From Natrialba aegyptia DSM 13077 (GTDB taxonomy: Archaea; Halobacteriota; Halobacteria; Halobacteriales; Natrialbaceae), in NCBI RefSeq assembly GCF_000337535.1, contig NZ_AOIP01000032.1:81988-145987 (forward strand): a stretch of DNA of 64,000 bases, in the 5' to 3' direction. Position numbers and translations under genes: made by a program. Of this stretch, positions 23,232-25,453 are shown in pieces. The notes under the pieces were generated by a model. The model had not been told where the DNA came from and did not search any database. It saw nothing but the letters and a program-made list of their open reading frames with translations. Within the stretch, counting starts at the first letter, position 1. Each line of letters opens with the position of its first letter.

Positions 23232-23317
23232 ACCGATCGGCACCCCGATTCGCTCGTTCGTTCGGCAGAACGCGTTGCTACTGGTCGACTCCGTCGATTC
23301 ATCAATCGTGCGGGATG

Positions 23318-23324
23318 TTTATAT
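23318..23324 (+). promoter_or_regulatory. TATA box ahead of the first structured repeat
   Basis: TTTATAT stands directly before the left copy of the paired repeat. A transcript would begin near 23345, inside the repeat. The right copy has only a weak TTCTATC at the same place. Confidence 0.45.
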
Positions 23325-23465
23325 CCCGTGAGAATGTACGCAAACATGGCTGCAAGCTAACCGCTTGGAAGCCACGTCTCGGATGGTGGCTCATCCGGGA
23401 CATTTTCATGTCCGTTGTGGCTTCCGTCCTAATTGTTGACTGGTAGTGACTTATATCTACCGCTG
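23325..23465 (+). repeat. Left copy of a structured ~142-nt repeat (possible ncRNA)
   Basis: This 141-nt sequence is matched by a diverged copy at 25147-25290 on the same strand. It can form three nested or adjacent stems: 23367-23375 with 23417-23425 (GGAAGCCAC/GTGGCTTCC, 9 bp), 23377-23385 with 23392-23400 (9 bp, hexaloop), and 23442-23446 with 23457-23461 (GGTAG/CTACC). A small alternative hairpin at 23398-23413 competes with the second. It has no open frame of note (ATG at 23346 reads five codons). Possible readings are a small non-coding RNA gene, an untranslated leader, or a MITE-like element. Confidence 0.6.
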
Positions 23466-23650
23466 GGCGGCGGGAAGGAGCGTTCGTCCGCGAGAGAACT
23501 CGTGTCGCTCTCGGCCGAACTCACAGATCGAATCTGACGGCAAAACCACCTCTGTACTGCCGTTCTTGGTTGTGCGATCCGGGCAGGGACACGGGTATTA
23601 AACTGCGAAGCCTCCACGATTGAAATCATTATAGAGAGCAAGGAGAATAC

Positions 23651-23670
23651 CCGCGCCTTTAGGCGCGGGA
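23651..23670 (+). repeat. 8-bp hairpin with TTTA loop, left of tnpB
   Basis: CCCGCGCC-TTTA-GGCGCGGG is a perfect 8-bp hairpin. It could be the left-end palindrome of the tnpB element. Yet in loop and in what follows (ATGAATCC) it resembles the right-end hairpin at 25059-25078 (loop TTTA, followed by AGGATGTC), so it could instead be the leftover 3' end of another such element. Confidence 0.6.
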
Positions 23671-23782
23671 TGAATCCGACACTCTGACCAGCAACCCACC
23701 GACGACACTTCACCCAGATATTCCACGCACAGTCGTTGATTTTAATAGCTATCTTTTCATAATACGTTATGAAGTCAGTACG

Positions 23783-25039
23783 ATGCTGGAGACGACCCGC
23801 ACCTACGTCGCACGCATCACGAACCACCAACAGGTTCGTGGCGATCTCGACCAGTGCGGGTTCTCCGCATCCAAACTGTGGAACGTCGGGCGCTACTACA
23901 TCCAACAACGGTGGGACGAAGACGGTGAGATACCCGGCGAAGCCGAACTGAAATCGGAGTTGAAAGACCACGAACGCTACAGTGACCTGCATTCTCAGTC
24001 AAGTCAGCGAGTTCTCGAAGAACTTGCTGAAGCGTTCACTGGCTGGTACAACTCCGACGACGGCAACAACCCACCGGGCTACCGGAAACGTGGCGACCGA
24101 CACCCACGCTCCACCGTAACGTGGAAACAGCGGGCTATCAAGCACGACGACAAACACGGTCAACTCCGCCTCTCGAAAGGGTTCAACCTGAAAGAGTCGC
24201 GGTCTGACTTCATCCTCGCCGAATACGAAACTCGTCCCGACGTACAGGTGGAGAACATCCAGCAGGTTCGTGCCGTCTGGAACGGCGACCATTGGGAACT
24301 CCACCTCGTCTGCAAGAAAGAGATTCCCGTCGAGGACGCGCCCGGCGACAAGACGGCGGGCATCGACCTCGGTATCAGTAACTATCTCGCCATCGACCAC
24401 GAGGATGGCCCCTCTGAGTTGTATCCAGGGAACACGCTGAAAGAGGACAAGCACTACTTCACCCGCGAGGAGTACCAGACCGAGGGAGAGAACGGGCCGT
24501 CGAAACGTGCGTTGAAGGCTCGCCGGAAACTCTCCCGGCGCAAAGACCACTTCCTCCACACCCTCTCAAAACACATCGTTGAGCGGTGTGTCGAGGAAGG
24601 TGTGAAGAAAATCGCGGTTGGCAATCTCAGCGACATCCGCGAAGATGAGAACGGTGACTCGCGGAACTGGGGTACGTCTGGGAACAAGAAACTCCACGGA
24701 TGGGAATTTGACCGCTTCGCCCGTCTACTCGAATACAAGGCCGAGGAACACGGTATCCTCGTTGACCGCGTAGACGAGGAGAACACGAGCAAGACGTGTT
24801 CGTGTTGCGGGCAAATTCGAGACAGTAATCGCGTGGAGCGTGGTCTGTACGTCTGTTCATCGTGCGAGACGACGATGAACGCGGATGTGAACGGTGCGGT
24901 GAATATCCGCAGAAGGATAACTCAGAGTCCCCCGACGGGGGATATGAGTAACGGCTGGTTGGCACAGCCCGGAGTCTTCCTGTTCGACCGCGAGAGCGGG
25001 TCGTTCAACACGAGAGAACAGGGAGACTGCAAACCCTAA
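23783..25039 (+). CDS. tnpB: TnpB RNA-guided nuclease-like protein
   Basis: A 418-residue OrfB/TnpB protein, the ancestor group of Cas12. The RuvC-like domain has Asp195 in GIDLGIS and Asp368 in NADVNGAVNI. The zinc ribbon between them has Cys339, Cys342, Cys358 and Cys361 (CSCCG, CSSC). The central acidic residue usually found as V-E-D-L is here VGNL (Gly280-Asn281); the nearest acidic residues are Asp284, Glu287 and Asp288 in SDIREDE. TnpB cuts DNA guided by an RNA from the element's right end, helping the element persist. Length matches active members (about 400). It has no tnpA beside it and sits upstream of dnaK. Confidence 0.9.
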   Translation: MLETTRTYVARITNHQQVRGDLDQCGFSASKLWNVGRYYIQQRWDEDGEIPGEAELKSELKDHERYSDLHSQSSQRVLEELAEAFTGWYNSDDGNNPPGYRKRGDRHPRSTVTWKQRAIKHDDKHGQLRLSKGFNLKESRSDFILAEYETRPDVQVENIQQVRAVWNGDHWELHLVCKKEIPVEDAPGDKTAGIDLGISNYLAIDHEDGPSELYPGNTLKEDKHYFTREEYQTEGENGPSKRALKARRKLSRRKDHFLHTLSKHIVERCVEEGVKKIAVGNLSDIREDENGDSRNWGTSGNKKLHGWEFDRFARLLEYKAEEHGILVDRVDEENTSKTCSCCGQIRDSNRVERGLYVCSSCETTMNADVNGAVNIRRRITQSPPTGDMSNGWLAQPGVFLFDRESGSFNTREQGDCKP

Positions 25040-25040
25040 T

Positions 25041-25085
25041 ATCCCAACGCTTGGGATTCCTCCGGCTTTAGCCGGAGGAGGATGT
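25041..25085 (+). ncRNA. Predicted right-end guide RNA scaffold (reRNA/omega RNA 3' part)
   Basis: Just after the tnpB stop are two perfect hairpins: ATCCCAA-CGC-TTGGGAT (25041-25057) and CCTCCGGC-TTTA-GCCGGAGG (25059-25078), then AGGATGTCAA. In TnpB systems the guide RNA scaffold comes from the end of tnpB and the right end, and its guide is the adjacent flank. Here the guide would begin near 25086. Only the 3' part is marked; the RNA probably extends back into the coding region. Confidence 0.55.
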
Positions 25086-25146
25086 CAACGACGCGATCCA
25101 GGGCACTAGCTGTCGTACCGTTCGGTTGCAGCCGCGTTCCTTCTAT

Positions 25147-25290
25147 CTCGTGAGAATGTACCCAACCGTGGCTGCAAACCCCATCAGCTTGGAAGCTACG
25201 TCTCGGCTGTCTCAACAGCCGGGACACTGTACGCCGGTTTAGCGGCTTCCGTTCTACTTATTGGACGGTAGCGACTCTGATCTACCGCTG
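25147..25290 (+). repeat. Right copy of the structured repeat (possible ncRNA)
   Basis: Roughly three quarters identical by eye to 23325-23465, in the same orientation. The blocks CGTGAGAATGTAC, GGCTGCAA, GCTTGGAAGC, ACGTCTCGG, GGCTTCCGT and ATCTACCGCTG are shared. The same stems form: 25191-25199 with 25242-25250 (one U-G wobble and one mismatch), 25201-25210 with 25215-25224 (10 bp, CUCA loop), and GGTAG/CTACC at 25272 onward (25267-25286 region). It lies about 60 nt after the tnpB element and about 195 nt before dnaK, which has its own TATA box, so it is not obviously the dnaK leader. Confidence 0.6.
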
Positions 25291-25453
25291 AATAACTAGA
25301 CGGACGACAATTCCACGTCTCACCGATTGATAACGCAATATCGGCCACCAGGCTTATCCGCTTCCATTCGTACTCGTCTGCGAAATCGCCCGACAGAACA
25401 GTGACAACGGCGTGTCCAGAATTTTATTCGGCTCACGAGTCTGGCTAGTAACG

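What the first reader, a model, noticed from the sequence alone, without database searches (positions are those of the whole stretch)
24617..24650. TnpB lacks the standard middle RuvC glutamate
The usual V-E-D-L strand reads V-G-N-L (Gly280-Asn281), while Asp195 and Asp368 are kept. Nearby acidic residues are Asp284, Glu287 and Asp288. Relocated catalytic residues and catalytically dead TnpB regulators are both described in the wider TnpB group, so this protein may be active through a moved residue or may only bind DNA.
Basis: partly seen in the sequence, partly recalled or inferred. Interest (0 to 1): 0.52.

Follow-up and report, generated by a model that had tools for sequence, protein, structure and literature searches.

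The report
Transposon nuclease with relocated catalytic glutamate
This salt-loving archaeon's RNA-guided DNA-cutting transposon protein lacks the usual middle catalytic glutamate but has one at a second position already described for such proteins, so it is probably a normal working member of a known variant and not a dead enzyme.

Summary
The 418-aa haloarchaeal TnpB (23783-25039, +) reads V-G-N-L at the RuvC-II strand, with Asp195 and Asp368 kept. It is not unique: Gly280 is kept in 78 of 80 relatives. Asp284, Glu287 and Asp288 vary; Glu332, 52 residues downstream, is invariant (80 of 80). Glu332 fits the published "alternative glutamate" (Ealt) signature exactly: D195-L-G, 134 residues, E332, six residues, C339xxC, 15, C358xxC, 6, D368. 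In a haloarchaeal sample the two glutamates are almost mutually exclusive: 51 canonical only, 18 alternative only (one is this copy), 1 both, 2 other ORFs, of 72 domains. A tree needs one switch. The rest looks like a working IS200/IS605-type element: zinc ribbon, omega RNA above the Rfam threshold, TTAT at the left end, and a guide matching for 17 nt a TTAT-flanked empty site in a congener; dN/dS is about 0.1. Verdict: ordinary D-Phi-G/Ealt TnpB, probably active. Cleavage and active-site distances were not tested.

The parts
23633..25088 (+). whole IS200/IS605-type (solo tnpB, IS1341-like) element, 1456 nt
   Evidence: conservation across 15 relatives starts after TTAT and stops after GGATGTCAA; flanks differ in every copy
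23629..23632 (+). TTAT, transposon-adjacent motif (TAM) at the left end
   Evidence: TTAT at the same place in 14 of 15 relatives printed, TTAC in L045; TTAT also precedes the empty target in G005
23783..25039 (+). tnpB, 418 aa
   Evidence: NF040570 guided_TnpB 197.6 bits (cut-off 100), PF07282 and PF01385 above cut-off
24365..24367 (+). codon of D195, RuvC-I (D-L-G)
   Evidence: D in 80 of 80 relatives
24620..24625 (+). codons of G280 and N281, the finding: glycine in place of the canonical glutamate
24776..24778 (+). codon of E332, alternative RuvC glutamate (Ealt), seven residues before the first zinc-ribbon cysteine
   Evidence: E in 80 of 80 relatives; ExxxxxxCxxC signature; loop after strand 326-331 in the model
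24797..24865 (+). zinc ribbon C339-C342 / C358-C361
   Evidence: all four Cys present; PF07282 match at residues 309-375
24884..24886 (+). codon of D368, RuvC-III
   Evidence: D in 80 of 80 relatives
24915..25088 (+). omega RNA (sotRNA) scaffold, overlapping the 3' end of tnpB
   Evidence: Rfam RF02656 sot0042 at 24915-25079, 97 bits, gathering 88, E 6.8e-24; DNA conserved to 25088
25089..25105 (+). start of the guide; first 17 nt match the TTAT-flanked empty site in same-genus genome G005
   Evidence: the real guide length is not known

Best explanation
It is a haloarchaeal TnpB of the D-Phi-G/Ealt kind. Its RuvC site is D195-E332-D368: the middle glutamate sits not on the RuvC-II strand (V-G-N-L) but in the loop between the next strand and the zinc ribbon. 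TnpB is expected to bind the omega RNA made from its own 3' end, use the sequence next to the element's right end as guide, and cut DNA that carries TTAT plus that sequence, that is, alleles lacking the element, which favours keeping or re-copying the element. Shown here: the signature, its invariance, the mutual exclusion with the canonical glutamate, the omega RNA match, the element ends, the TAM and the guide-target match. Inferred: metal binding by E332, cleavage, and the homing role.
For: Exact fit to the published regular expression for Ealt TnpBs. E332 invariant in 80 of 80 relatives down to 73% identity and in all 16 rows of an alignment down to 57%. Exclusion of the two glutamates: 51 canonical only, 18 alternative only including the window copy, 1 both, 2 ORFs that are not usable TnpBs, of 72 distinct domains; 0 of 56 viral-contig TnpBs have E at the alternative position. 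One switch on a tree built without the two columns. AlphaFold2 model (pLDDT 75.5, pTM 0.69) puts E332 directly after strand 326-331, D195 in strand 190-196 and D368 in helix 367-380, the layout given for Fanzor-type sites in PMC11423790 section 7. Omega RNA, element ends and TAM, guide match to an empty site, dN/dS 0.071-0.145 against 18 relatives.
Against: No cleavage or metal-binding data for this protein or, in what I read, for any haloarchaeal Ealt TnpB. Distances between the three carboxylates could not be measured because no coordinates were given; the loop 331-340 has mean pLDDT 73. One canonical TnpB (L112) has E at both places, so E there is not proof of use. The exclusion rests on about one evolutionary event, so the counts are not independent. 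N281 is rare in close relatives and its effect is unknown.
Confidence: 0.88

Rival explanations
1. The protein is a nuclease-dead RNA-guided DNA binder (TldR-like regulator) derived from a TnpB.
For: Canonical glutamate lost. No tnpA inside the element; the three Y1 transposase genes of the genome lie elsewhere.
Against: D195, E332 and D368 all present and invariant; element ends, TAM and a changing right flank in each copy show a moving element, not a fixed regulator; guide matches an empty target site, not a promoter.
Confidence: 0.05
2. A different nearby acid (D284, E287 or D288) replaces the glutamate.
For: They are acidic and within eight residues of G280.
Against: D284 is D in 51 of 80 and K, Q, N or Y in 15; E287 E in 73; D288 D in 73; E332 E in 80 of 80. 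The model gives 286-304 pLDDT under 50, so this stretch is not a well-fixed part of the site.
Confidence: 0.03
3. The kind is active, but this copy is weakened by N281 (D in most relatives) or by its odd junction, left and right flanks coming from two different TTAT sites.
For: N281 in 1 of 80 relatives; left flank matches G002 up to one TTAT, right flank matches G005 after another.
Against: N occurs at this column in 6 of 99 rows of the E332 set; ORF intact and dN/dS low; the guide still fits a TTAT target.
Confidence: 0.08

Closest known systems
Ealt TnpBs with D-Phi-G RuvC-I (PMC10711439, Nucleic Acids Res. 2023)
   Same: D-Phi-G motif, no canonical glutamate, E-x6-CxxC, zinc ribbon and final Asp with the published spacings
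   Different: nothing that I tested; the passages I read do not describe the haloarchaeal branch, so this is a placing, not a named match
Pro-Fanzors / Fanzors (DPG + Ealt)
   Same: same alternative glutamate
   Different: D-L-G, not DPG; no IS607 TnpA in the element
Halobacterium salinarum IS200/IS605 tnpB with sotRNA/omega RNA (PMC12558985; Rfam RF02656)
   Same: omega RNA family and its place at the 3' end of tnpB
   Different: the text I read does not discuss the RuvC residues
ISDra2 TnpB and AsCas12f (PDB 8h1j, 7wju)
   Same: overall fold (VIA Z 22.0 and 25.8)
   Different: canonical glutamate on the RuvC-II strand where this protein has G280
ISFba1 TnpB (8iaz) and mimivirus Fanzor2 (9b0l)
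   Same: overall fold (VIA Z 21.0 and 19.5)
   Different: residue-level comparison of their active sites was not printed

Membership tests
TnpB of the D-Phi-G/Ealt kind | RuvC-I D-x-G with x not Pro | tested here: met
   D195-L-G197; regex match residues 195-368
TnpB of the D-Phi-G/Ealt kind | Glu at E-x6-CxxC before the zinc ribbon | tested here: met
   E332...C339; 80 of 80 relatives
TnpB of the D-Phi-G/Ealt kind | no Glu at the canonical RuvC-II position | tested here: met
   G280 opposite the E of AsCas12f
TnpB of the D-Phi-G/Ealt kind | two CxxC at 12-18 spacing, then Asp at 4-8 | tested here: met
   15 and 6 residues
TnpB of the D-Phi-G/Ealt kind | RNA-guided DNA cleavage through that glutamate | not testable with these tools
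   needs protein, omega RNA and target DNA
RNA-guided TnpB (NF040570) | profile score over the curated cut-off | tested here: met
   197.6 bits, cut-off 100
RNA-guided TnpB of an IS200/IS605-type element | omega RNA at the 3' end, TAM at the left end, guide from the right flank | tested here: met
   RF02656; TTAT; 17-nt match to an empty site in G005
TldR-like nuclease-dead regulator | loss of RuvC catalytic residues (recalled) | tested here: not met
   D195, E332, D368 present
Fanzor / pro-Fanzor | DPG at RuvC-I | tested here: not met
   D-L-G; DPG regex has no match in P0001

The most novel reading that the evidence does not exclude
The haloarchaeal D-Phi-G/Ealt TnpBs are active homing nucleases whose moved glutamate gives a different cleavage behaviour (for example little collateral single-strand cutting) in an archaeal, single-strand-type transposon, independent of the cyanobacterial pro-Fanzors.
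Probability: 0.15. Interest if true: 0.4.

Novelty: new member of a known kind. Interest (0 to 1): 0.14.

Why it matters
It removes a false lead: a TnpB without the RuvC-II glutamate should be checked for E-x6-CxxC before it is called dead. If the enzyme is active it gives a clean pair for testing what the glutamate's place does, because canonical and alternative TnpBs live side by side in one haloarchaeal genome (this copy and five with a canonical E).

Tried and rejected
First AlphaFold2 run with 23 close relatives was poor (pLDDT 45.6, pTM 0.34) and was set aside for a run with 71 rows including viral-contig TnpBs. E333, six residues before C339 by another way of counting, was considered first and dropped: it is E in only 40 of 80.

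In one search my reading of the states from alignment columns failed for 62 of 94 rows because indels shifted the canonical column; states were read again by motif (64 canonical, 28 alternative, 1 both, and L262 missed by the motif but reading CCEDL). The tree itself was the same.

Rows dropped: of 75 loci L087-L161, four (L091, L092, L119, L161) gave no ORF with the zinc-ribbon pattern; one identical domain was removed. The sample was taken from the printed, best-scoring rows and is not random. Of 80 loci L220-L299, 56 gave a usable ORF. Four of the 80 close loci fail the published D-not-P-G expression or lack a parsed full ORF: L037 has DPG, L082 a short ORF, L046_1 and L054_0 are second, unrelated ORFs; L003, L004, L048 and L060 gave no ORF with the pattern. 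Five of the 80 have stops inside the matched stretch (L040, L060, L082, L083, L085). A Fisher test counted the window copy among the 18 and ignores kinship; I do not use it.

A Fanzor-by-name search for the alternative glutamate in other papers found only PMC10711439. No paper testing a haloarchaeal TnpB for cleavage showed in the listings.

Full report
What is there. The ORF at 23783-25039 (+) encodes a 418-aa TnpB, over the cut-offs of NF040570, PF07282 and PF01385. The window lies in a 4.6-Mb genome of 65 contigs; its close relatives are all haloarchaea.

Is the glutamate really missing at 280? Yes. AsCas12f aligns without a gap through this strand with its E opposite G280, and its Pro opposite E332. 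In 80 related loci from named genomes, position 280 is G in 78, D in 1, S in 1; position 281 is D in 77, E in 2, N in 1. So Gly280 belongs to the clade, Asn281 nearly to this copy.

Where did it go? Among 80 relatives D284 is D in 51, E287 is E in 73, D288 is D in 73, but E332 is E in 80, like D195 and D368. PMC10711439 (sections 10 and 23 and passages read) defines a canonical glutamate about 50 residues before the zinc finger and an alternative one just before it, with the expression D{P}G-x(120-160)-ExxxxxxCxxC-x(12-18)-CxxC-x(4-8)-D, and reports a clade with D-Phi-G and the alternative glutamate. The window protein fits throughout, with spacings 134, 6, 15 and 6. PMC11423790 section 7 places the glutamate of such sites in the loop between the fifth strand and the zinc-ribbon domain; in our model E332 follows strand 326-331 directly.

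Is it a switch or a coincidence? I sampled TnpBs of the own genome and 40 relatives through NF040570. Of 72 distinct domains, 51 have E at the canonical place and Pro or Ala at the alternative one, 18 have Gly and Glu (17 besides the window copy), 1 has E at both (L112), 2 are other ORFs (L110_0, L105_1). None of 56 TnpBs from viral contigs has E at the alternative place. The five other TnpBs of the own genome all carry the canonical E (read from the printed stretches). On a tree of 94 rows built without the two columns the alternative rows sit together and one change is needed. This is one event, so the counts show clade membership, not repeated selection. E332 is kept down to 57% identity and in a viral-contig relative at about 51% (L190).

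Is the element otherwise intact? Rfam RF02656 (sot0042) matches 24915-25079 at 97 bits, gathering score 88; PMC12558985 (abstract, section 19 and passages read) states that these sotRNAs are the omega RNAs of H. salinarum IS200/IS605 tnpB. Conservation across 16 copies ends after 25088, and every copy has a different right flank. The left end follows TTAT at 23629-23632; 14 of 15 relatives printed have TTAT and one has TTAC. Same-genus genome G005 lacks the element and has TTAT followed by the first 17 nt of the guide; the own genome has no such site with up to one mismatch, G002 and G003 have one each with a mismatch inside the TTAT. The left flank instead matches G002 up to another TTAT, so the copy joins two TTAT sites, by a deletion next to the insertion or by recombination between two copies (inference). 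The element holds no tnpA; three Y1 transposase genes lie elsewhere in the genome. dN/dS against 18 relatives is 0.071-0.145.

Structure. The 71-row AlphaFold2 model has pLDDT 75.5 and pTM 0.69. Its best matches are AsCas12f (Z 25.8, rmsd 4.7, 357 aligned), TnpB 8h1j (Z 22.0), ISFba1 TnpB 8iaz (Z 21.0) and mimivirus Fanzor2 9b0l (Z 19.5). No coordinates were available, so I could not measure the distances between D195, E332 and D368.

Verdict. The reading of a moved residue is right in kind, wrong in place; the reading of a dead binder is not supported. Activity is inferred, not shown. The finding is an ordinary member of a published variant.

Noticed in passing
window 23309-23475 and 25131-25300 (+): Two copies of a dispersed ~160-nt structured repeat flank the element, the second just upstream of dnaK. 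16 matches in the own genome, 1 to 15 in six same-genus genomes; in a 146-genome sample of the order only 12 match, all of the own family, and per-genome counts there are capped. 22-copy alignment folds into three hairpins with covariation at one pair (AU 13, GC 8, CG 1). No Rfam match up to E 1. It holds two TATA-like boxes; could be a small RNA gene or a non-autonomous mobile element.
   Followed up: partly
window 25089-25110; L174:940-1518: The element's right flank is the very 3' end of a LURP-one-related (PF04525) gene that is whole in G005; the rest of that gene is absent between the repeat copies here.
   Followed up: partly
L175:1240-3023: In same-genus G002 the same interval between the two repeat copies holds an ABC transporter ATPase-like and a permease-like ORF (by eye): the dnaK-upstream interval differs in all three genomes.
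   Followed up: no
L037 (Halorubrum coriense), TnpB: This haloarchaeal relative has D-P-G plus the alternative glutamate, the pair of motifs called the Fanzor fingerprint in PMC10711439, evidently by one change inside this clade.
   Followed up: no
L112 TnpB: A canonical haloarchaeal TnpB with glutamate at both the canonical and the alternative position.
   Followed up: no
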